The notes under the pieces are model-generated. The model did no database searches. It had not been told where the DNA came from and saw nothing but the letters and a program-made list of their open reading frames with translations. Of a stretch of DNA of 64,000 nt, positions 8,643-31,803 are shown one piece after another. The stretch's first letter is position 1. Every line of letters starts with the position of its first letter. The translations under genes and the position numbers were made by a program. The DNA comes from Pseudomonas sp. St316. GTDB lineage: Bacteria; Pseudomonadota; Gammaproteobacteria; Pseudomonadales; Pseudomonadaceae. The DNA is taken from the NCBI RefSeq assembly GCF_018325905.1, contig NZ_AP021901.1:2976001-3040000 (forward strand), given 5' to 3'.

Positions 8643-10508
<1,866 letters not shown>

Positions 10509-12264: not shown

Positions 12265-12278
12265 TTGATCGCCATCAA
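12265..12278. promoter_or_regulatory. ANR/DNR box of the norCBD promoter
   Basis: TTGATCGCCATCAA matches the consensus perfectly. A -10-like TAGAAT at 12302-12307 predicts a start near 12314, placing the box at about -41.5, the class II FNR position. DNR with NO is the expected activator. Confidence 0.88.
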
Positions 12279-12335
12279 GCGGTTTCCGACCCCGCGCTTC
12301 CTAGAATGAACACGCCAAGCAATGAGGAAGTGACC

Positions 12336-12776
12336 ATGTCAGATACCTTCACCAAAGGCATGGCCAGGAATATTTATTTCGGGGGAAGCATCTTCTTCTT
12401 CCTGATATTCCTGGCCCTGACCTACCACACGGAACAGACCTTTCCAGAACGCAGCAACCAGGCGCAATTGACGGAATCGGTGATACGCGGCAAGGGCGTC
12501 TGGGAGCGCAACAACTGCATCGGCTGCCATACCCTGCTGGGCGAGGGCGCGTACTTTGCGCCGGAGCTGGGCAACGTGGTCAACCGTCGCGGTGGCGAGG
12601 AAGCCTTCAAGCCGTTCCTGCAGGCCTGGATGAAAATGCAGCCGCTGAACGTTCCGGGGCGTCGGGCCATGCCGCAGTTCAACCTGAGCGAGCAAGAAGT
12701 CGACGACATCGCCGAGTTCCTTAAATGGAGCTCGAAAATCAATACCAATGGCTGGCCGCCAAACAAGGAGGGCTGA
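12336..12776 (+). CDS. norC: NorC, cytochrome c subunit of NO reductase
   Basis: This 146-residue protein has one N-terminal membrane anchor (about residues 13-30) and the periplasmic heme motif CIGCH at 61-65. It carries electrons from c-type cytochromes to NorB. ATG 12336 (MSDTFTKGMARNIYFGG) matches other pseudomonad NorC starts and follows GAGGAAG; the upstream ATG at 12306 would add ten unrelated residues. It sits 3 nt before norB. Confidence 0.96.
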   Translation: MSDTFTKGMARNIYFGGSIFFFLIFLALTYHTEQTFPERSNQAQLTESVIRGKGVWERNNCIGCHTLLGEGAYFAPELGNVVNRRGGEEAFKPFLQAWMKMQPLNVPGRRAMPQFNLSEQEVDDIAEFLKWSSKINTNGWPPNKEG

Positions 12777-14207
<1,431 letters not shown>

Positions 14208-16228: not shown

Positions 16229-16429
16229 TCAGGCGATGCTGCGGGGCAGCCAGAAGAACATGACGATGCAGAAGATCGTCAAGCCGACGCAAAACCAGGT
16301 GAAGCGCCGCAGCCGGCGTTCGCCGGCCATCGCCGCTTCGGCCGGCAGGGGCATGCCGCACTGGTGGCACTCGGTTTCATCGGCAGGGTTGGCCTCCTGG
16401 CAATACAGGCAGGTGGGCTGCGCGCTCAT
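16229..16429 (-). CDS. DnrP-like small zinc-ribbon membrane protein
   Basis: This 66-residue protein has an N-terminal zinc ribbon (CLYC at 7-10 and CHQC at 21-24) and one C-terminal membrane helix (FTWFCVGLTIFCIVMFFWLP). Small proteins of this kind next to dnr are annotated DnrP in other pseudomonads; the function is unknown. The start overlaps the dnr stop by ATGA, so the two are cotranscribed. Two paired CXXC motifs near a membrane anchor would suit metal or redox sensing, but that is inference. Confidence 0.75.
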   Translation of the reverse strand: MSAQPTCLYCQEANPADETECHQCGMPLPAEAAMAGERRLRRFTWFCVGLTIFCIVMFFWLPRSIA

Positions 16430-17109
16430 TCGAATTGCTCCAGGCGCAGGCGATCGAGAATGGCGATCTGGCGACCGTCCTGAGTGATGATTTTTTCATC
16501 GATCAGGCGCCGGATGATCCGCGAGAAGGTTTCCGGCTGGATCGACAAGTGCCCGGCGATCAACTGCTTGGCCATCGGCAATTCGAACTGGCAATCCACC
16601 GCTTGCAGGCGCACCAGCTGCGTCAGCAGGTAGCGCACCACGCGGTGAGTGGCGTTCTTCAGCGACAGGGTTTCAATCTCGTTGACCCGTTGGTGCAGGC
16701 GCACGCAGAGCTTGCCGAGCAGGGCGAAGGTCAGCCGGCTGTTGCTTTGCAGCAGCCGCATGTAGGTGGCGTTGGACAGTCGGTACACCTGGGTCGGGCC
16801 AACGGCTTCGGCGGACGCCACGTAGTTGGGTGTGTCCATCAGCATCATGGCTTCGGCGAAGGTCTGGCGCTCGCCGATCACCTCGAAGACCTTTTCCTGG
16901 CCATCCGGGGTCAGCCGGTAGATTTTCACGGCCCCGGAAATCACGAAGTAAAACGCCTGCGCCGGCTCTCCCTGACGGAACAGTGGGTCGCCCTTATCGA
17001 TGTTCAGGAGTTGGCTGTTGCTCATCAATTCGTTGAGCTCTTCTTCGTTCAAGGGCTCGAACAGGTGATGGCTGCGCAGAATCTGGTGATGGACGCGGTG
17101 GAGCACCAT
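16426..17109 (-). CDS. dnr: Dnr, Crp/Fnr-type NO-responsive regulator of denitrification
   Basis: This 227-residue protein has a cyclic-nucleotide-type sensor domain (1-120), a dimer helix (125-150) and a C-terminal helix-turn-helix whose recognition helix contains IQPETFSRIIRRL. It lacks the N-terminal cysteine cluster of ANR, so it is the heme-dependent NO sensor that activates nir and nor promoters. No ANR box was found upstream. Instead a sigma-54 promoter and three NorR-type sites precede it, with a 29-codon ORF in between. ATG 17109 follows AAGGATTCCATGCC. Confidence 0.93.
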   Translation of the reverse strand: MVLHRVHHQILRSHHLFEPLNEEELNELMSNSQLLNIDKGDPLFRQGEPAQAFYFVISGAVKIYRLTPDGQEKVFEVIGERQTFAEAMMLMDTPNYVASAEAVGPTQVYRLSNATYMRLLQSNSRLTFALLGKLCVRLHQRVNEIETLSLKNATHRVVRYLLTQLVRLQAVDCQFELPMAKQLIAGHLSIQPETFSRIIRRLIDEKIITQDGRQIAILDRLRLEQFE

Positions 17110-17148
17110 GGCATGGAATCCTTGTAAGGGCGAAAGAGGTGATCGGGG

Positions 17149-17238
17149 TCAGACCAGGGTCAGGGACAGGCCGCTGGCAAGCGCCACGACGCAGGAGAGC
17201 AAGACGAACCAGGTAAGCGGCAGAACTACGGATTTCAT
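17149..17238 (-). CDS. Candidate 29-residue hydrophobic small protein ahead of dnr
   Basis: A short ORF lies 39 nt upstream of dnr on the same strand. It encodes Met-Lys followed by an almost wholly apolar stretch (VVLPLTWFVLLSCVVALASG...), the profile of a single-helix membrane microprotein. It begins about 25 nt after the predicted sigma-54 start, so it would be the first gene of the dnr transcript. The ribosome site is weak (GGGG 6 nt before ATG). It could be a leader peptide, a real microprotein, or chance coding. Confidence 0.4.
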   Translation of the reverse strand: MKSVVLPLTWFVLLSCVVALASGLSLTLV

Positions 17239-17273
17239 GGATGACCCCGACAAGAAAGGTGATGCAGTGCCTG

Positions 17274-17289
17274 AGCAAGAGACGGGCCA
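17274..17289 (-). promoter_or_regulatory. Sigma-54 promoter (-24/-12) for the small ORF and dnr
   Basis: On the minus strand TGGCCCGTCTCTTGCT fits TGGCAC-N5-TTGCW with one mismatch and the required GG-N10-GC. A start near 17263 is predicted. Three NorR-type sites begin 42 bp upstream of the -24 GG, almost the same arrangement as at dnrN. Confidence 0.7.
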
Positions 17290-17329
17290 TGCTTGCGGGC
17301 ATTGATTCGTCGGGCTTTAGGATCGATGA

Positions 17330-17389
17330 GGGTATAAATGACCCTGGCGAGATAGGGTAAAAACAACCACGAAAGGGTATTTAGTACCC
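17330..17389. promoter_or_regulatory. Three GGT-N7-ACC NorR-type enhancer sites between dnr and nnrS
   Basis: Sites lie at 17330-17344 (GGGTATAAATGACCC), 17355-17369 (GGGTAAAAACAACCA) and 17375-17389 (GGGTATTTAGTACCC). Start-to-start spacing is 25 and 20 bp. GGT-N7-ACC in three copies is the known NorR motif of Ralstonia eutropha. The norR gene is 3 kb away in this window. Confidence 0.8.
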
Positions 17390-17407
17390 TTATCAGCTAC
17401 AGTCGTT

Positions 17408-17510
17408 GTGGGAGCCGAGCTTCTGTGGGAGCCGAGCTTGCTCGCGATGAAAGCGCCGCGGTCCACGCAGGACGGCGTTATCGTTCATCGCGAACAAGCT
17501 CGGCTCCCAC
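17408..17510. repeat. REP doublet with a duplicated arm upstream of nnrS
   Basis: Inverted REP arms with the consensus GTGGGAGCCGAGCTTGCTCGCGA are present; the left arm begins with a 15-bp tandem duplication (GTGGGAGCCGAGCTT twice). It lies between the NorR-type sites and nnrS. Confidence 0.85.
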
Positions 17511-17512
17511 AA

Positions 17513-17528
17513 CGGCAAGCCCCTTGCA
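17513..17528 (+). promoter_or_regulatory. Possible sigma-54 promoter for nnrS
   Basis: CGGCAAGCCCCTTGCA keeps GG-N10-GC but has two mismatches to TGGCAC-N5-TTGCA. A weak FNR-like site (TTGATCTGAGACAA, 17567-17580) is the alternative route of control for nnrS. Confidence 0.4.
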
Positions 17529-17663
17529 AGTACCTGTTCGAGACGGGAGGTTGCCGATGCGCTGGCTTGATCTGAGACAAGGCCGGCCGGCGTCGATAGC
17601 CGATCATTCGAACCCTGGTTTGTCGTACCTCGCTGGCGGTTCAGCGAGGCAAAGGAGTGGTGT

Positions 17664-18854
17664 ATGCAAGTGCTTGACCGTCGCAAGGCCATGGCCATTT
17701 CGCCGTTGTGGCGCCTGGCGTTCCGGCCGTTTTTTTTGGCCGGGTGTGTATTGGCGCTGTTGGTCGTTCCCCTTTGGCTCGCGGCGTTCACTGGACGCTT
17801 GTCGGCCTGGCAGCCGGCTGGCGGCTGGTTGGCCTGGCACCGGCATGAACTGTTGTTCGGTTTCGGCCTGGCGATCATCGCCGGGTTCCTGCTGACGGCG
17901 GTGCAAACCTGGACGGGAATCCCCGGCCTCAGCGGCAAGCGCCTGGCCACCCTGGCGTTATTGTGGCTGGGCGCGCGGCTGGCCTGGCTGGTCGATGCGC
18001 CCTGGCCGTTACTGACGCTGCTGGAGCTGGGTTTTGCCCTGGCGGTCGCGGCGTTGATGGGCGTGATGTTGTGGCGTGTGCGGCAGAAGCGCAATTACCC
18101 GATTGTGCTGGTATTGCTGCTGTTGGCCGCCGCCGATGGGTTATCCGTATACGGTCTGGTGCAGCACAACGAGGGCTTGCAGCGCCAGAGCGTGCTCACC
18201 GGCCTGTGGCTGGTGGCGGCGATGATGGGGTTGATCGGCGGGCGCGTGATTCCATTCTTTACCCAGCGCGGCCTCGGTCGGGTGGAGGGCGTTGCCCCTT
18301 GGCCGTGGCTCGATCGCCTGTTGCTGGCAGGGTCGGCGTTAGTGGCGTTGTTGTATGCCTTCGGTCCGGCGCTGGTGACCAGCGTCTGGGTCGGCCTGTT
18401 GTTCGCCGCGTTGGCGGTGGGCCACGGGATTCGACTGGTGCGTTGGCATGATCGGGAGTTGTGGCGGGTGCCGCTGCTGTGGTCGTTGCACCTGGCCTAC
18501 GCCTGGCTGGCGGTTGCCTGCCTGGGCATGGCGCTGTGGCACTTCGGCGTGCCGGTGAACCCGAGCCTGGCGGTGCACGGCCTGACCATCGGCGCCATGG
18601 CCGGGTTGATCCTGGCGATGATTGCCCGTGTCAGCCTGGGCCATACCGGGCGCGCCCTCGAGCCGCCGACGGGCATGACCCTGGCATTCATCCTGCTGAA
18701 CCTGGCGTGCCTGAGCCGCGTGCTGTTGGTGCTGCTGTTGCCGTTGGCCGGGCTGTGGCTGGCGGCGCTGTGCTGGACGTTGGGGTTCGGTCTATACGCC
18801 TGGCGTTATGGCCCGATGCTGTTGCGCGCCCGGGTGGACGGGCATCCGGGATGA
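17664..18854 (+). CDS. nnrS: NnrS family membrane protein
   Basis: This 396-residue protein has about 12 hydrophobic helices. NnrS is a heme- and copper-containing membrane protein found with denitrification genes, and in other bacteria it helps cells resist nitrosative stress. Its start MQVLDRRKAMAISPLWRLAFRPFFLAG carries the family FRPFFL motif. ATG 17664 follows AAAGGAG. Control by NorR or DNR is likely from the upstream region (sites at 17330-17389, with a REP in between). Confidence 0.9.
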   Translation: MQVLDRRKAMAISPLWRLAFRPFFLAGCVLALLVVPLWLAAFTGRLSAWQPAGGWLAWHRHELLFGFGLAIIAGFLLTAVQTWTGIPGLSGKRLATLALLWLGARLAWLVDAPWPLLTLLELGFALAVAALMGVMLWRVRQKRNYPIVLVLLLLAAADGLSVYGLVQHNEGLQRQSVLTGLWLVAAMMGLIGGRVIPFFTQRGLGRVEGVAPWPWLDRLLLAGSALVALLYAFGPALVTSVWVGLLFAALAVGHGIRLVRWHDRELWRVPLLWSLHLAYAWLAVACLGMALWHFGVPVNPSLAVHGLTIGAMAGLILAMIARVSLGHTGRALEPPTGMTLAFILLNLACLSRVLLVLLLPLAGLWLAALCWTLGFGLYAWRYGPMLLRARVDGHPG

Positions 18855-19471: not shown

Positions 19472-20146
19472 TCAGCGTACTGGTTTCATCGCATTGACGA
19501 ACAACACGTTGTTTTCCAGGTGGATGTGCTGCATCAGGTCGTCGCGAAATTCCACCAGCCCGCGATACAGGGCGCGCCAGGTGTTGCAGGCGTCGGAGGG
19601 CGGGGTGATCTGGTCGGTCAGGGTGAGCATGGTTTCCAGGGCTTCACCGTGCTGGTCGTGTTCGTAGCGCAAGACCTGGATCGGCGCCGAGGCCCGTTCG
19701 CCCAGGCCCTGTTGCAGCATCGGGAACAGCACCTGTTCTTCCTTGAGCATGTGGCCTTCGAGTTCCTGATACATGTCCTGCAAGTGATCGGCCAGGCCGT
19801 TGGGGCAACTGGCTCGTGCGCCATGGACCAGCTCGACGCGCCGGGCCAGGCGGATCAGTTCCGGCAGTTGTTCGCGATGACGCGCGTGGTAGCGCTCCAG
19901 GATGTGGGCAATCAAGGTTGCCTGGGGTTCGTCGCGCCAGTCATGGCCCAGCTCTCCGGCCGCTTGCAGGGTGCGCAGGGCATCGGCGATCAGCAGTGGG
20001 TTCAGGCCCTTGCCGAGCGCGGCTTCGCGCAAGGATTTTCGCCCGCCACAACAGAAGTCGAGGTTGTAATGATGGAAGGTACGGGTAGCACCGGGAATGT
20101 CGCAGGCCAGTTGGCCGAGGCTTTGTTCCAGCAGATCGAGGCTCAT
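19472..20146 (-). CDS. dnrN: DnrN/YtfE, di-iron protein for repair of iron-sulfur clusters (RIC)
   Basis: This 224-residue protein has an N-terminal ScdA-like domain with a paired cysteine (FCCGG, 32-33) and a hemerythrin-like C-terminal domain with spaced His and Glu ligands (HILERYHARHREQLPEL, ELEGHMLKEEQVLFPM, EHDQHGE, HIHLENNVLF). Such proteins repair or protect Fe-S clusters after NO damage. It is divergent from norR, with a strong sigma-54 promoter and three NorR-type sites between them. Confidence 0.93.
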   Translation of the reverse strand: MSLDLLEQSLGQLACDIPGATRTFHHYNLDFCCGGRKSLREAALGKGLNPLLIADALRTLQAAGELGHDWRDEPQATLIAHILERYHARHREQLPELIRLARRVELVHGARASCPNGLADHLQDMYQELEGHMLKEEQVLFPMLQQGLGERASAPIQVLRYEHDQHGEALETMLTLTDQITPPSDACNTWRALYRGLVEFRDDLMQHIHLENNVLFVNAMKPVR

Positions 20147-20192: not shown

Positions 20193-20208
20193 TGCAGCCG
20201 GTGTGCCA
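20193..20208 (-). promoter_or_regulatory. Sigma-54 promoter (-24/-12) of dnrN
   Basis: On the minus strand TGGCACACCGGCTGCA matches TGGCAC-N5-TTGCA with one mismatch. The predicted start near 20182 leaves a leader of about 36 nt before the dnrN ATG at 20146. Confidence 0.82.
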
Positions 20209-20247
20209 GATTTAACTGACTGAAAATAAAGCATTAAATTTTTTGAA

Positions 20248-20306
20248 GGGTGATTGTCACCCTGATTGTGAAGGGTCAAACGAACCCTGGAGGGTCATCA
20301 TTACCA
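20248..20306. promoter_or_regulatory. Three GGT-N7-ACC NorR sites between dnrN and norR
   Basis: Sites lie at 20248-20262 (GGGTGATTGTCACCC), 20273-20287 (GGGTCAAACGAACCC) and 20292-20306 (GGGTCATCATTACCA). Spacing is 25 and 19 bp. The third touches the norR start codon, so NorR bound there could also hold down its own synthesis. Confidence 0.85.
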
Positions 20307-21838
20307 TGCTGCGTGAAAGCCTGGCCGCCGACCTGATCGTCGAGTTGCCCAATGCGGTGCGATTGCAGCGCCTGGTGCAGACCCTGCGCGAATACTTCAA
20401 CAGTGGCGCCGTGGGTTTGTTGCGCCTGGACGATGACAGCCTCAGGCCCGTGGCCACCGTAGGGCTGGTCCACGAGGCGTTGGGCCGGCGCTTCGTGATT
20501 GCCCAGCACCCGCGCCTGGCGGCGATCATGGCGTCGCGCGAACCCACCTGGTTCGAGCCGGACAGCCGTTTGCCGGACCCTTATGACGGCTTGCTCGACA
20601 ACCACGTCGGCGAGCCGCTGCCGGTGCATGACTGCATGGGCGTAAGCCTGTACGTGGAGGGCCGGCTCTGGGGCGCGATTACCCTGGATGCGTTGCACGC
20701 CGGTACCTTTGACAGCCGCGCCCGGGAGGAACTCAAGCGCTGTACGTTACAGATCGAGGCAGCGGTGCGAGTCACTCGGCTGGAACAGGAAAACCGTAGC
20801 TTGCGGGCGTCGCGCAGCGACCAGACCGACCTGCGGTTACCAGCGGAGGAGGGCGAGATCCTCGGGCGCAGCGAAGGTTTACAGCAATTGCTCAATGAGT
20901 TGGATGTGCTGGCCGACTCCGAACTGCCGGTGCTGTTGCTGGGGGAAACCGGTGTCGGCAAGGAGTTGTTCGCCCGGCGCTTGCATCGCTTGTCCCGGCG
21001 CGGCCACAAGCCGCTGGTTCAGGTCAACTGTGCGGCGTTGCCGGAGTCCCTGGCCGAAAGCGAGTTGTTCGGCCATGTCAAAGGTGCATTTTCCGGCGCG
21101 ACCACCGACCGTGCCGGGCGTTTCGATGCGGCCAATGGCGGCACGTTGTTTCTCGATGAGGTCGGTGAATTGCCGCTGAGCGTGCAGGCCAAGTTGTTGC
21201 GCACTTTGCAGAATGGTGAGATCCAGCGCTTGGGGGCGGATAAGCCGCTGCACGTCGATGTACGGATCATCGCTGCCACCAACCGGCATTTGCCCGACAG
21301 TATCCGCGACGGGCTGTTTCGCGCCGACCTGTACCACCGGCTTTCGGTCTACCCGGTGCCGATCCCGCCGCTGCGCGAGCGCGGCCACGATGTGTTGATG
21401 CTGGCCGGGCACTTTCTCGAACTGAATCGTACGCGCCTGGGCCTGCGCGGCTTGCGCCTGTCACCGGCCGCCGAACAGGCGTTGTTGGCGTACAGCTGGC
21501 CCGGCAATGTCCGGGAGCTGGAGCATGTGATCAGTCGCGCCGCGTTGAAGCAACTGAGCCATGGCGCCAGTCGCAGCTTGATCATGACTTTGGAGCCGCA
21601 GGTGCTGGACCTCGATGTCAATGCCAGCGCAGGCGTGATGCAAGCGATACCGGAGCAGGCCCTGCAAGCGTTGGATGCGCCCGTGCAACCCTTGAGCGAG
21701 GCTGTCGATGGTTGCCAGCGACAGGCGATCCTCAGGGCCTTGGAACGCTGTGGGCAAAACTGGGCGGGCGCGGCGCGGCTGTTGGAGGTTGATCCCAGCA
21801 ACCTGCATAAACTGGCGCGGCGGTTGGGGCTCAAGTAG
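20306..21838 (+). CDS. norR: NorR, NO-sensing sigma-54 activator
   Basis: This 510-residue protein has an N-terminal GAF domain (about 15-165) that in the family binds NO through a non-heme iron, a central AAA+ domain (about 190-420: Walker A GETGVGKE, Walker B GGTLFLDEVGELP) and a C-terminal Fis-type helix-turn-helix. The sigma-54 contact loop reads GAFSGA (about 260-265) rather than the usual GAFTGA. ATG 20306 is preferred over the longer frame because the latter would read through the operator region. It is divergent from its likely target dnrN. Confidence 0.93.
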   Translation: MLRESLAADLIVELPNAVRLQRLVQTLREYFNSGAVGLLRLDDDSLRPVATVGLVHEALGRRFVIAQHPRLAAIMASREPTWFEPDSRLPDPYDGLLDNHVGEPLPVHDCMGVSLYVEGRLWGAITLDALHAGTFDSRAREELKRCTLQIEAAVRVTRLEQENRSLRASRSDQTDLRLPAEEGEILGRSEGLQQLLNELDVLADSELPVLLLGETGVGKELFARRLHRLSRRGHKPLVQVNCAALPESLAESELFGHVKGAFSGATTDRAGRFDAANGGTLFLDEVGELPLSVQAKLLRTLQNGEIQRLGADKPLHVDVRIIAATNRHLPDSIRDGLFRADLYHRLSVYPVPIPPLRERGHDVLMLAGHFLELNRTRLGLRGLRLSPAAEQALLAYSWPGNVRELEHVISRAALKQLSHGASRSLIMTLEPQVLDLDVNASAGVMQAIPEQALQALDAPVQPLSEAVDGCQRQAILRALERCGQNWAGAARLLEVDPSNLHKLARRLGLK

Positions 21839-28367: not shown

Positions 28368-29045
28368 CTACTGCTGATAACCCTCAAGCCCATCCTCGGA
28401 CAAGATACGAATCTGACGTCGCTCCATGGCAATCAACCCCCCATCCACCAACCGATGAAGAATCCGCGAAAAGGTCTCCGGCTGAATCCCCAGCTTGGAA
28501 GCCACCAAGCGTTTGGATACCTGCAACACCAACTGACCATCCCGCGGATCGCGCTCTTGCAGCAGGAAATTGATCACCCGCCGGCTGGCGCTGGCCAAGG
28601 TCAGGTTGTCGATGTCCTTGAGGCGCTGGTGCAGATGAATGCTCATGCTTGCCAGGATCGCCAGGCAAACCTTGGGCTGGTCCTCCAGGGCCTTGCGGTA
28701 ATGCGTGCCCTCGATGCTCACCAGCACGCTGTCCTTGATCGCCGACGCGCTGACCGGGTAGCAACGGGCCTGGCTGAACAGTAGGGCCTCGGCGAAGGTC
28801 TGTCCGGGCTGGATGATCTCCACCAGGTTTTCCTGGCCTTCGCCAGTGACTCGGAACAGCTTGATCTGGCCACTGACCAGCAAGAAAAACCGCTTGGCCG
28901 GATCGCCTTGGTGCATGAGCGTGCTGTTGCATTCCAGGCGCCTGAGGACGGCCAGGCTGCAGACATCTTCAAAGACCCGCTCCGGCAGTTGGCTGAACAG
29001 GTGATGACGACGCAACAGTAAAACGATGGAAGGGTGGGTCAGCAT
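28368..29045 (-). CDS. Second Dnr-type Crp/Fnr regulator (DnrE-like)
   Basis: This 225-residue protein has a sensor domain (1-120) and a helix-turn-helix with IQPETFSRILHRL, almost the same recognition helix as Dnr at 16426. It lacks the ANR cysteine cluster. In P. stutzeri a similar gene, dnrE, lies next to narXL, as here. It probably binds the same TTGAT-N4-ATCAA sites and may add nitrate-dependent input. Ribosome site GGAGGTACGCC before ATG is strong. The 5' region holds only a weak NarL-like heptamer pair near 29110. Confidence 0.85.
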   Translation of the reverse strand: MLTHPSIVLLLRRHHLFSQLPERVFEDVCSLAVLRRLECNSTLMHQGDPAKRFFLLVSGQIKLFRVTGEGQENLVEIIQPGQTFAEALLFSQARCYPVSASAIKDSVLVSIEGTHYRKALEDQPKVCLAILASMSIHLHQRLKDIDNLTLASASRRVINFLLQERDPRDGQLVLQVSKRLVASKLGIQPETFSRILHRLVDGGLIAMERRQIRILSEDGLEGYQQ

Positions 29046-29274: not shown

Positions 29275-29922
29275 TTAGCCCGCTCCGCGCAAATGCTCCA
29301 TCGCCCACACCGCCGCTTCTACCCGGGAGCGCAAGCCGAGCTTGTGCAGCAGGTTCTTCACATGGACCTTGACCGTGCCTTCAGTGATACCCAGCTTGTG
29401 CCCGATGACCTTGTTGCTGTAGCCGCCGGCGATGGTCTTGAGCACCTGGCGTTCGCGCTCGGTCAGTTCCACATCGGCCTGGCGCGGCGGGGAGCGCAGG
29501 GCCTGGGCCATGACGCGGGTCAGGCCGGGGCTGATCACCAGGGCGCCGTTGAGGGCGTCGCGGATGTACTGGATCAGCAACTCGGGCTCCATGTCCTTGA
29601 GCAGGTAACCATTGGCATCCAGGCGCAGGGCATCGCGGATGTCGTCCTCGGCATCGGACACGGTGAACAGCAGCACCTTGCCGGTGTAGTGCATGGCACG
29701 CAGCCGGCGCAGGGTCTCGATGCCGTTCATCTGCGGCATGTTGTTGTCCAGCAGCACCAGGTCGGGCTTGAGCGGCTCTATCAGGGTCAGGGCCTCTTCG
29801 CCGTGGCTGGCTTCGCCGACAATCTGCAGATCGTCTTCAAGTTCAAGCATCTGGCGGATGCCGCGACGCATCATCGGATGATCGTCGACCAGTAGCAGGG
29901 TATGGCGCAGGGGGGCGTTCAT
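29275..29922 (-). CDS. narL: NarL, nitrate/nitrite response regulator
   Basis: This 215-residue protein has an N-terminal receiver domain (acidic pocket VDDHP, phospho-acceptor in LVLLDNNMP near residue 59) and a C-terminal LuxR-type helix-turn-helix (GYSNKVIGHKLGITEGTVKVH). It is phosphorylated by NarX and binds heptamer pairs such as that at 31901-31916. The start overlaps narX by 4 nt. Confidence 0.94.
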   Translation of the reverse strand: MNAPLRHTLLLVDDHPMMRRGIRQMLELEDDLQIVGEASHGEEALTLIEPLKPDLVLLDNNMPQMNGIETLRRLRAMHYTGKVLLFTVSDAEDDIRDALRLDANGYLLKDMEPELLIQYIRDALNGALVISPGLTRVMAQALRSPPRQADVELTERERQVLKTIAGGYSNKVIGHKLGITEGTVKVHVKNLLHKLGLRSRVEAAVWAMEHLRGAG

Positions 29923-31718
29923 GTTGCGAGGCCTTCGGTGTGTTGGCCCAGGAATTCCGGTTGGAAATGCACCTGGATACGGGTGCCCTGGGGTGTACGG
30001 GAGAGAATCTGCAGTTGGCCACGCAGGCTGCGGGCTCGTTCGTTCATGATGTTGAGGCCATGGTGTTCGCGCTGGTCCACTTCGCCGCTGAAGCCGCGGC
30101 CATCGTCTTCGATCGACAGCCGTACGGTCTCGCCTTCCTGGCGTAGTTCAAGCCAGGCGTTCTCGGCATGGGCATGGCGCAGGCAATTGGACAAAGCCTC
30201 GCGGGTGATCTGCAGGATGTGGATCTGCTCGCTGGCCGACAGCTCGAAGGCCAAGGTGTCGACGAACAGGTGCACCTGGAAATCCCCTCGGTTGGAGAAC
30301 TCCTCGGCGGTGTCCTTGAGCTCCTCCACCAGGCCATCGTCGTGGATCTGCAAGCGAAAGGTGGTGAGCAGTTCACGCAGTTGGCGATAAGCGTTGTTCA
30401 GCCCTTCGCGCAGCTCGCCGGTGACGGTTTCCAAGGTCTGCACCGGCTCGCCCCGACGCATCAGGGTCTGCATGCGGCTGACTTGCAGCTTCATGTACGA
30501 CAAGGCCTGGGCCAGGGAATCATGCAGCTCGCGGGCAATGATCGTGCGTTCATCGAGCAGCAGCAGGCGATGGTCCTGTTCCCGCTGGCGCTTGAGGGAC
30601 AGCGACGTGCCGATCAGGTTGGCCAGGGCCTGGATCAATGCGGTTTCCCAGGGCTGCGCGGCGTGGCCGTCGACAAAATGCGCCTTGAGCTCACCCAGCT
30701 CGTTGCCCTGGTTGCTGATGCTGAAGGCCTGCGGGCGTGCAGCGTTGTGTTTATGGCAACTGGCGCAATCGCTGCTGGCGCAGACCTGACGGCTGTCGGC
30801 GCCATGCAGGGCCAGCAAATGCCTGGCCGGTGTCTGCAATTGCCCTTGCAGGCACAGCGTCAGGCGCAGGCCCGGCAGGCGCTGCTGGAAGCGCCGGATC
30901 AACTCGTCCAGCCCTTCGGCATTGGCCTGTCGCGTCGCCAGGCTGCGACTGCTCTGGTACAGCAGCTCCAGGGCGGCGTTGGCTTGTTGCAGGTTCAGGG
31001 TCTTTTGCTGGACCTGGTTTTCCAGGGTGCGGTGCGATTGTTCGATGGTTTCGGCCATGGTGTTGAAACTGGTCGCCAACTGGCCCAGCTCATCTTCGGA
31101 CTGGTGATTGACCCGCACCTGGAATTCGCCACGGCGAAAGCGCTGGGTGGCGTCCACCAACTCCTGCAAGGGCGTGACCACGCCGTACTGCAACTCATAC
31201 AGGCCAATCAGCAGGATGATCATGGTGCTGAACAGCGCCGCGCCCTGGATCGTCTGTTGCCAGCCTTGTTTGTGTTCGCTCTGGCGTTGCAGCAGGGTAA
31301 CGAACTGGTCCAACTGCTCAACGAAAGAGCTGGCGCTGCTTTGGAAAAACGCCGAATCGCCGCGCTCGATGGCCGGGCGCAAGGTCTGGTCCCAGCGTTG
31401 CACAAGGTTCTGGTAGCTCTGGCGCAGGGAGGTTGTCGGCCCGTCTTCCAGTACGGCGCGCAGGGCAGGGCTGTCGAGGCGTTGTTGCAGGCTGGCGATG
31501 ATCGCCGGGATGTCCTCGTTGTCTCCCGCCGCCAGCTTCCAGCTCAGGTGGTAGGTCTCCATGCGCACGGAACCGGCGGTGTTGATGGCGGCAGCGTCGC
31601 CCTGGCTGAACCAGGCGATCAATCCGGCACTCAAGGAACTGGCCAGGGCCAGGATGGCGATCAGGATCACCGCCAGCCCGGCGCGAGCGGGCAGGGAACT
31701 GCGCAGCCAACGCATCAT
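29919..31718 (-). CDS. narX: NarX, nitrate/nitrite sensor histidine kinase
   Basis: This 599-residue inner-membrane sensor has two helices flanking a periplasmic domain with the nitrate-binding P-box (AAINTAGSVRMETYHLSWKL), then HAMP, a linker with cysteines (CASSDCASC), and HisKA_3/HATPase domains. The phospho-acceptor histidine lies in ELHDSLAQALSYMKLQVSR. ATG 31718 (MMRWLRSSLPARAG) is chosen over a TTG at 31739. It is divergent from narK1. Confidence 0.93.
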   Translation of the reverse strand: MMRWLRSSLPARAGLAVILIAILALASSLSAGLIAWFSQGDAAAINTAGSVRMETYHLSWKLAAGDNEDIPAIIASLQQRLDSPALRAVLEDGPTTSLRQSYQNLVQRWDQTLRPAIERGDSAFFQSSASSFVEQLDQFVTLLQRQSEHKQGWQQTIQGAALFSTMIILLIGLYELQYGVVTPLQELVDATQRFRRGEFQVRVNHQSEDELGQLATSFNTMAETIEQSHRTLENQVQQKTLNLQQANAALELLYQSSRSLATRQANAEGLDELIRRFQQRLPGLRLTLCLQGQLQTPARHLLALHGADSRQVCASSDCASCHKHNAARPQAFSISNQGNELGELKAHFVDGHAAQPWETALIQALANLIGTSLSLKRQREQDHRLLLLDERTIIARELHDSLAQALSYMKLQVSRMQTLMRRGEPVQTLETVTGELREGLNNAYRQLRELLTTFRLQIHDDGLVEELKDTAEEFSNRGDFQVHLFVDTLAFELSASEQIHILQITREALSNCLRHAHAENAWLELRQEGETVRLSIEDDGRGFSGEVDQREHHGLNIMNERARSLRGQLQILSRTPQGTRIQVHFQPEFLGQHTEGLAT

Positions 31719-31803
31719 CGACGCGGGCCTGCGAGGCAAAACTGTGAACCGAGCATAGGGGGCGCCCTGGACCTGGGGGTGTAGCAGCCAATCCTGGGCG
31801 CAC

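What the first reader, a model, noticed from the sequence alone, without database searches (positions are those of the whole stretch)
17109..17389. dnr looks like a direct NorR/sigma-54 target
Upstream of dnr there is a good -24/-12 element (17274-17289) and three GGT-N7-ACC sites (17330-17389). The layout is almost identical to dnrN/norR: first site 42 bp (dnr) or 41 bp (dnrN) from the -24 GG, then spacings of 25 and 20 (dnr) or 25 and 19 (dnrN). No ANR box was found at dnr, unlike the ANR to DNR cascade known in P. aeruginosa. This implies an NO relay in which NorR senses NO and makes DNR, which then needs NO itself: a double gate.
Basis: partly seen in the sequence, partly recalled or inferred. 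Interest (0 to 1): 0.85.

Follow-up and report, generated by a model that had tools for sequence, protein, structure and literature searches.

The report
Nitric-oxide switch controls denitrification regulator
In many soil pseudomonads the gene for DNR, a nitric-oxide-sensing master regulator of denitrification, sits behind a conserved promoter built for another nitric-oxide sensor, NorR, so it appears to be switched on by nitric oxide itself rather than only by lack of oxygen.

Summary
Upstream of dnr lie three GGT-N7-ACC boxes and a -24/-12 element laid out as at dnrN/norR; the genome (6.78 Mb) has no other overlapping triplet. The layout follows NorR: 54 of 56 dnr-bearing genomes of the genus with this NorR have triplet plus sigma-54 element, 0 of 12 without it, though all 12 keep another NorR-like protein. 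The tie looks old: in 19 of 20 genomes of group g15 (probably Stutzerimonas) the triplet precedes a dnrN-(dnrO)-dnr cluster. Published RNA-seq of Pseudomonas donghuensis P482 under presumed NO stress shows dnr, nnrS and ytfE/dnrN rising together without nir genes. NorR control of dnr is very likely; the 'double gate' is an untested inference. Independent evolutionary events are few, and there are exceptions. Prior work partly anticipates it: NorR sites predicted at P. stutzeri dnrN and, recalled, NO induction in the dnrD operon. New variant of a known kind.

The parts
16426..17109 (-). dnr, CRP/FNR-family regulator, 227 aa
   Evidence: Pfam cNMP_binding and HTH_Crp_2; best solved structure 3dkw, 'DNR protein', E 4.3e-96 over residues 3-227
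17149..17238 (-). 29-codon gene, a miniature dnrO (one hydrophobic segment), between the promoter and dnr
   Evidence: 29-codon form in 51 of 68 genomes; pN/pS 0.43 in frame against 0.92 and 2.38 in the other frames; a form of it, short or long, in 61 of 68; matches the N-terminus of longer DnrO proteins
17274..17289 (-). -24/-12 (sigma-54) element for dnrO-dnr
   Evidence: TGGCCCGTCTCTTGCT; positions not required by the scan are 97-99% conserved against 63-79% in the spacers, in two groups of 23 and 10 genomes
17331..17343 (.). NorR box 1, GGTATAAATGACC
17356..17368 (.). NorR box 2, GGTAAAAACAACC
17376..17388 (.). NorR box 3, GGTATTTAGTACC
17404..17514 (.). REP-like inverted repeat lying between the NorR boxes and the nnrS promoter
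   Evidence: two inverted-repeat pairs, 28 nt at 96% and 19 nt at 100%; the gap from boxes to the nnrS -24 varies from 34 to 233 bp over 45 loci; 'REP' is a recalled label
17513..17528 (+). -24/-12 (sigma-54) element facing nnrS
   Evidence: CGGCAAGCCCCTTGCA, 10 of 12; score of 10 or more in 48 of 48 NorR genomes with nnrS beside dnr, 0 of 8 without NorR
17567..17580 (+). FNR/DNR-like box of nnrS (TTGATCTGAGACAA, 2 mismatches)
   Evidence: such a box within 200 bp of nnrS in 50 of 56 loci, with or without NorR
17664..18854 (+). nnrS
   Evidence: Pfam NnrS, E 8.4e-108
19472..20146 (-). dnrN (ytfE/RIC, iron-sulfur repair)
   Evidence: NF008221, E 5.4e-98
20193..20208 (-). -24/-12 element of dnrN, TGGCACACCGGCTGCA
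20249..20305 (.). NorR triplet shared by dnrN and norR; the last box ends directly before the likely norR ATG
   Evidence: 20249-20261, 20274-20286, 20293-20305
20306..21838 (+). norR (start at 20306 inferred from the E. coli alignment; the mechanical ORF begins at 20243)
   Evidence: NF003451 NorR, 689.6 bits against a cut-off of 476; aligned with E. coli NorR
12265..12278 (+). perfect FNR/DNR box upstream of norCB (norC 12306-12776, norB 12780-14207; names from sequence, not family hits)
   Evidence: TTGATCGCCATCAA
10425..10438 (-). FNR/DNR box, one mismatch, upstream of the likely nirS start (10322; nirS named by eye)
   Evidence: TTGACCGCGATCAA

Best explanation
The nnrS-dnr intergenic region is a NorR-controlled divergent promoter. 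NorR, bound to the three boxes, senses NO through its GAF domain and activates sigma-54 RNA polymerase at 17274-17289, making a dnrO(mini)-dnr transcript starting near 17263. Very probably it also acts on the opposite-facing sigma-54 element at 17513-17528, which drives nnrS. The same NorR drives dnrN from its second triplet and probably represses its own gene there. DNR then needs NO to activate norCB and nirS, whose upstream regions carry FNR/DNR boxes. So NO sensing by NorR supplies DNR, and NO sensing by DNR spends it: a serial, NO-only gate in place of the ANR gate on dnr. Shown here: the sites, their layout, conservation and co-occurrence with NorR. Supported by a published transcriptome: co-induction of dnr, nnrS and dnrN. 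Inferred: NorR binding, the start site, use of one enhancer by both promoters, and the double gate.
For: No other overlapping triplet in the genome. Composite pattern 59 of 298 genomes, reversed control 0 of 298. Triplet plus sigma-54 at dnr in 54 of 56 NorR genomes and 0 of 12 without, although all 12 keep a NorR-like match at E 1e-130 or better; strict boxes 53 of 56 and 0 of 12. nnrS-facing sigma-54: 48 of 48 against 0 of 8. The gap from the nearest box to the dnr -24 element is 40-43 bp in all 49 loci with two or more strict boxes that include the nearest, while the distance from the element to dnr varies from 37 to 954 bp. In G015 norR lies about 1 Mb from dnr, yet the triplet is there. 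19 of 20 g15 genomes have the triplet before dnrN-(dnrO)-dnr; the one without it also lacks NorR and has a perfect FNR box at dnr -100. E. coli norVW shows the same plan. NorR keeps R75, D96, D99, H111, C113, D131 of E. coli numbering (their role is recalled). P. donghuensis P482 RNA-seq, log2 fold change in tomato exudate: dnr 3.23, nnrS 4.99, ytfE 6.36, norC/B/D 4.2-4.4, norR -1.67, nir genes not induced (PMC10256816, passages).
Against: No binding or expression data for this strain. On the dnr tree the NorR label changes only 3 times, so the co-occurrence rests on 2-3 independent events and the paired sign test cannot reach 0.05. G300, G316, G360 and G438 have NorR at 75-78% but no triplet at dnr. 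P. chlororaphis PCL1601 has only a fragmentary NorR in its locus yet keeps loose boxes; L199 keeps loose boxes with no NorR in its locus, where one may lie elsewhere. In P. donghuensis norCBD rose but nir did not, so DNR induction does not by itself switch on the pathway; the NO there was inferred by the authors, and P482's own promoter was not examined, only that of strain HYS. E. coli NorR R81 is A here. The nnrS-facing element differs from consensus at two positions in this genome (resampling P 0.019).
Confidence: 0.82

Rival explanations
1. The triplet exists mainly for nnrS, and the dnr-facing element is weak or a by-product; dnr is expressed from another promoter.
For: nnrS has its own conserved sigma-54 element; Rodionov et al. 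predicted NorR control of nnrS in P. aeruginosa and V. cholerae (passages).
Against: The gap from the nearest box to the dnr element is 40-43 bp in 49 of 49 loci and matches dnrN, while the gap to the nnrS element varies from 34 to 233 bp. The dnr-facing element is the better match here (11 of 12 against 10). In g15 the triplet stands before dnrN-(dnrO)-dnr, and in G082, G180, G187, G222, G224 and G288 before dnrO-dnr, with no nnrS match in the fetched upstream DNA.
Confidence: 0.07
2. A different sigma-54 activator, the paralog about 53% identical to NorR (FhpR-like, name recalled), is the protein that uses the dnr boxes.
For: 291 of 298 genomes carry a NorR-like match at E 1e-130 or better; as far as the list shows, most are this paralog. 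Paralogs may recognise similar boxes.
Against: All 12 dnr-bearing genomes without the window-type NorR keep a NorR-like match yet lack the triplet. Against this, P. chlororaphis PCL1601 keeps loose boxes with a fragmentary NorR.
Confidence: 0.08
3. NorR only adds a detoxification boost; the main control of dnr during denitrification is anaerobic (ANR/NarL) through an unrecognised site or through read-through.
For: ANR and NarL control dnr in P. aeruginosa (reviewed in PMC8139620 and PMC4338189, passages). Some g15 genomes have an FNR box about 100 bp before dnr besides the upstream triplet.
Against: No FNR box with 2 or fewer mismatches within 300 bp of dnr and no sigma-70-like site at 17100-17680. 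NarL boxes were not tested.
Confidence: 0.25

Closest known systems
E. coli norR-norVW (NorR, sigma-54, three GT-N7-AC sites)
   Same: Three boxes and a sigma-54 element in the norR-norV gap, spacings 21 and 24; the window protein is NorR by NCBIfam.
   Different: The target there is an NO reductase, not a second NO-sensing regulator; the E. coli boxes do not fit the GGT/ACC form seen here.
P. stutzeri dnrN-dnrO-dnrD operon
   Same: NorR sites and sigma-54 predicted before dnrN (Rodionov 2005, passages); 19 of 20 unnamed g15 genomes show the triplet before dnrN-(dnrO)-dnr. NO induction of dnrN-dnrO upstream of dnrD is recalled from Vollack and Zumft 2001, not held.
   Different: Here nnrS and a copD-like gene lie between dnrN and dnrO-dnr; dnr has its own triplet and promoter; dnrO is cut to 29 codons; nnrS has a divergent sigma-54 element.
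P. aeruginosa ANR to DNR cascade
   Same: DNR itself: the solved structure 3dkw matches end to end. The neighbouring norCBD and small zinc-ribbon genes are recalled as shared.
   Different: There dnr is under ANR with NarL; here no FNR box is near dnr and a NorR promoter takes its place. The unnamed g9/g12 genomes carry an FNR box in 17 of 20 and no triplet.
V. cholerae NorR regulon (hmp, nnrS)
   Same: nnrS as a predicted NorR target (Rodionov 2005, passages).
   Different: No dnr there in that account; here one triplet may serve nnrS and dnr.

Membership tests
NorR/sigma-54 regulated promoter | Three tandem GT-N7-AC boxes | tested here: met
NorR/sigma-54 regulated promoter | -24/-12 element at a fixed distance downstream | tested here: met
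NorR/sigma-54 regulated promoter | norR in the same genome and co-occurring with the site across genomes | tested here: met
   54 of 56 against 0 of 12 in the genus; 20 of 24 against 0 of 32 among 56 sampled genomes of other genera; few independent events
NorR/sigma-54 regulated promoter | NO-, NorR- and RpoN-dependent transcription in vivo; NorR footprint | not testable with these tools
   only indirect: P482 RNA-seq
NorR protein | GAF, AAA+ sigma-54 activator domain, above the NCBIfam cut-off | tested here: met
   GAFSGA instead of GAFTGA
DNR protein | CRP/FNR fold protein matching the solved P. aeruginosa DNR over its length | tested here: met
   3dkw over residues 3-227; that 3dkw is from P. 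aeruginosa is recalled
DNR protein | haem-based NO activation | not testable with these tools
   from literature on DNR (PMC6152468, passages)
ANR-controlled dnr promoter | FNR box near the dnr promoter | tested here: not met
   no box with 2 or fewer mismatches within 300 bp
sigma-54 promoter of nnrS | -24/-12 element conserved and linked to NorR | tested here: met
   48 of 48 against 0 of 8

The most novel reading that the evidence does not exclude
In this lineage DNR has been rewired from an oxygen-gated to an NO-gated regulator. One NorR triplet fires two diverging sigma-54 promoters, so NO alone, even with oxygen present, makes DNR, NnrS, DnrN and the DnrO micro-protein together. DNR then acts first as an arm of NO detoxification (norCBD) and only later, at higher NO or low oxygen, opens nirS. 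This would make entry into denitrification an NO-triggered, possibly all-or-none switch that a cell cannot start without outside or leaked NO.
Probability: 0.4. Interest if true: 0.75.

Novelty: new variant of a known kind. Interest (0 to 1): 0.6.

Why it matters
The usual Pseudomonas cascade puts DNR under ANR and NarL. Here, and in 54 of the 56 sampled genomes of the genus that have both NorR and dnr, the sequence says NO itself supplies DNR. That would change how models predict when these soil and rhizosphere bacteria begin denitrification, how NO from plants or neighbours primes them, and whether they respond all-or-none. It is testable with two gene deletions and a reporter. It also points to a conserved 29-residue protein of unknown function between promoter and regulator.

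Tried and rejected
Chance: rejected by resampling, the genome-wide scan and the reversed controls. nnrS as sole target and the paralog as activator: judged unlikely (see rivals). Strict GGT/ACC boxes alone undercount: G169 and G006 keep the boxes about 165 bp further from the promoter; P. chlororaphis L198, L199 and L207 keep only looser GT-N7-AC boxes. The looser full-triplet test in turn misses G205 and G114, which keep two strict boxes and one. In one search the third number of the spacing tally is the distance to the dnr start, not to the -24 element; one search gives the latter. NarL heptamers and IHF sites were not tested. The paired test on the tree is underpowered and not claimed as significant; the Fisher P ignores shared ancestry and is not used. 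Pfam searches of DnrO and of two 29-residue forms gave nothing above cut-off.

Papers: PMC1274295, PMC13086519, PMC8139620, PMC4338189, PMC10256816, PMC12403760, PMC6152468 and PMC11526790 were seen as passages by term search only; all others only as search listings. The nine searches turned up no statement that NorR controls dnr in the listings or passages seen; supplementary tables were not read and most subscription papers are not held. Vollack and Zumft 2001 is recalled, not read.

It corrected the count of loci without any dnrO-like ORF (7 of 68, not 8); contig lengths showed that L110 and L200 are one genome. Confidence was lowered by 0.01 for the P. chlororaphis and L199 exceptions.

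Full report
WHAT IS THERE. The dnr gene (16426-17109, minus) and nnrS (17664-18854, plus) diverge from a 554-bp gap. On the minus strand, about 165 bp before dnr, is TGGCCCGTCTCTTGCT (17274-17289), 11 of 12 letters of the -24/-12 consensus. Behind it stand GGT-N7-ACC boxes at 17331-17343, 17356-17368 and 17376-17388. The other triplet, at dnrN/norR (20249-20305, sigma-54 at 20193-20208), has the same layout within a base or two. A scan of the 6.78 Mb genome for paired boxes found overlapping pairs, that is triplets, at these two places only. Resampled intergenic DNA gave no triplet in 20,000 trials.

IDENTITY OF THE PLAYERS. The dnr product matches the solved DNR protein end to end (3dkw, E 4.3e-96). 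The norR product passes the NCBIfam NorR cut-off (689.6 against 476 bits). It shares 233 aligned identities with E. coli NorR and keeps R75, D96, D99, H111, C113 and D131, but has A for R81 (that these residues form or flank the iron site is recalled). The E. coli norR-norVW gap, used as a positive control, shows three GT-N7-AC boxes and a sigma-54 element. No FNR box with 2 or fewer mismatches lies within 300 bp of dnr; boxes with none or one mismatch lie upstream of norC (12265) and nirS (10425).

CONSERVATION INSIDE THE GENUS. Of 298 genomes drawn from the genus, 71 had a match to Dnr and 68 an ortholog of 71% or more; three (G071, G130, G284) held only distant paralogs and were left out. 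I fetched all 68 neighbourhoods. Window-type NorR (75% or more over most of its length) is present in 56 of these 68. With strict boxes, 53 of 56 have at least two boxes plus a sigma-54 element before dnr; 0 of 12 without NorR do. With the looser GT-N7-AC triplet the numbers are 54 of 56 and 0 of 12, and 0 of 68 in reversed upstream sequences. The two misses, G205 and G114, keep two strict boxes and one. All 12 NorR-less genomes still have a NorR-like match at E 1e-130 or better. Two of the 12 (G101, G004) hold a NorR without its sensor part, and three (G013, G054, G248) a 65-67% homolog; all were counted as absent. On the dnr tree NorR presence changes only three times, so this is 2-3 independent events, too few for significance. 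The nearest box lies 40-43 bp from the -24 element in all 49 loci tested. Positions of the dnr sigma-54 element not required by the scan are 97-99% conserved, against 63-79% in the spacers. In G015 norR is about 1 Mb away from dnr and the triplet is still there. Among 80 named loci, many of them the same genomes, 68 have strict boxes and three more only loose ones; in two of the 68 (P. marginalis L154, P. veronii L163) the boxes stand before dnrN, which precedes dnr. One of the three with loose boxes, P. chlororaphis PCL1601, has only a fragmentary NorR in its locus, a case against a strict tie.

OUTSIDE THE GENUS. Of 248 genomes drawn from the family, 95 had a dnr match; I fetched 60, of which 56 lie in other genera. 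In g15, 19 of 20 have the triplet and sigma-54 element in front of dnrN, with dnr downstream and dnrO between them seen in 17. The twentieth, G412, lacks NorR at E 1e-170, lacks the triplet and has a perfect FNR box 100 bp before dnr. In g9 and g12, 0 of 20 have a triplet, and 17 of 20 have an FNR box of 2 or fewer mismatches within 400 bp upstream of dnrN in a dnrN-dnr arrangement. Among the 56, NorR of 73% or more occurs in 24, of which 20 have the triplet; 0 of 32 without it do. The four exceptions are G300, G316, G360 and G438.

First, a -24/-12 element faces nnrS at 17513-17528. In 56 of 68 loci nnrS lies beside dnr; a score of 10 or more of 12 is found in 48 of 48 with NorR, and the best score in the 8 without NorR is 8. 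One triplet may thus serve two diverging sigma-54 promoters. In this genome a REP-like inverted repeat (17404-17514) sits between the boxes and that promoter. Second, a 29-codon gene lies between promoter and dnr (17149-17238). The 29-codon form occurs in 51 of 68 genomes with pN/pS 0.43 in frame, against 0.92 and 2.38 in the other frames; ten more have a longer form, and 7 of 68 have no such motif within 1.5 kb. It matches the N-terminal hydrophobic segment of longer proteins at the same place, up to 181 aa in G187; one relative of those is named DnrO by its source. So the primary transcript is dnrO(mini)-dnr.

EXPRESSION EVIDENCE FROM PRINT. In P. donghuensis P482, tomato root exudate raised dnr by 3.23, nnrS 4.99, ytfE (dnrN) 6.36, norC/B/D 4.2-4.4 and hmp 6.13 log2 units, lowered norR by 1.67, and did not induce nir genes; with maize exudate dnr, nnrS and ytfE changed by 0.3-0.5 only (PMC10256816, passages). 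Strain HYS of the same species has the boxes and the sigma-54 element before dnr (L205); P482 itself was not examined. The authors ascribe the response to exogenous NO and do not, in the passages seen, link dnr to NorR. Three predicted NorR targets rise together, and norR falls, as expected if NorR represses itself from boxes that end directly before its likely ATG. norCBD rising fits DNR being active.

HOW IT LIKELY WORKS. NO binds NorR; NorR remodels sigma-54 polymerase at the dnrO-dnr promoter and probably at the nnrS one; DNR accumulates; DNR, itself needing NO (literature), turns on norCB and nirS. The first steps rest on sequence and on co-induction; the double gate follows from known properties of the two proteins and is not shown here.

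PRIOR KNOWLEDGE. Rodionov and colleagues predicted NorR sites with sigma-54 promoters at hmp and dnrN of P. stutzeri and NorR control of nnrS in P. aeruginosa and V. cholerae; dnr is not named as a NorR target in the passages seen. From memory, Vollack and Zumft (2001) reported that NO induces dnrN and dnrO upstream of dnrD in P. stutzeri; the paper is not held. So NO-inducible transcription reaching dnr has precedent. What appears new is the direct NorR promoter at dnr in the fluorescens lineage, its tie to NorR presence, the divergent nnrS element and the shrunken dnrO.

VERDICT. A new variant of a known kind, interest 0.6.

Noticed in passing
L082 (G101), L110 and L200 (both G004, P. rhodesiae), L154 (P. 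marginalis), L163 (P. veronii): four genomes: A NorR lacking the GAF NO-sensing domain (matches begin near residue 199-206 of 531, frame open) stands beside a DnrN whose match begins only at residue 69 in the three named genomes; the triplet at dnrN is kept, while dnr and nnrS have none in G101 and G004. A sensor-less NorR would need another signal or be always on.
   Followed up: partly
window 17149-17238, minus: Conserved 29-residue hydrophobic micro-protein, a reduced DnrO; 61 of 68 genomes have a short or long form before dnr. Function unknown.
   Followed up: partly
L108 and L113 (G169, G006): About 165 bp inserted between the NorR boxes and the dnr sigma-54 element, with the boxes still intact: a natural test of enhancer distance.
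   Followed up: no
window 20249-20305: The dnrN triplet ends directly before the likely norR ATG (20306), which suggests that NorR represses its own gene.
   Followed up: no
L252 (G412): A g15 genome without NorR and without the triplet has a perfect FNR box 100 bp before dnr, as if the gate had been swapped.
   Followed up: partly
window 28368-29045, minus: A second CRP/FNR regulator (about 36-37% identical to Dnr) next to sensor-kinase and response-regulator ORFs at 29275-31739 that look like NarXL (read by eye from the ORF list, not tested); its place recalls DnrE of P. stutzeri.
   Followed up: no
window 12265-12278 and 10425-10438: norC has a perfect FNR/DNR box and nirS a one-mismatch box; this may relate to norCBD but not nir rising in P. 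donghuensis.
   Followed up: no
window norR, AAA+ domain: GAFSGA replaces the GAFTGA loop of E. coli NorR, also in the GAF-less relatives.
   Followed up: no
L198 (P. chlororaphis PCL1601): NorR matches only in two pieces (225 residues covered) although loose NorR boxes and both sigma-54 elements remain.
   Followed up: no
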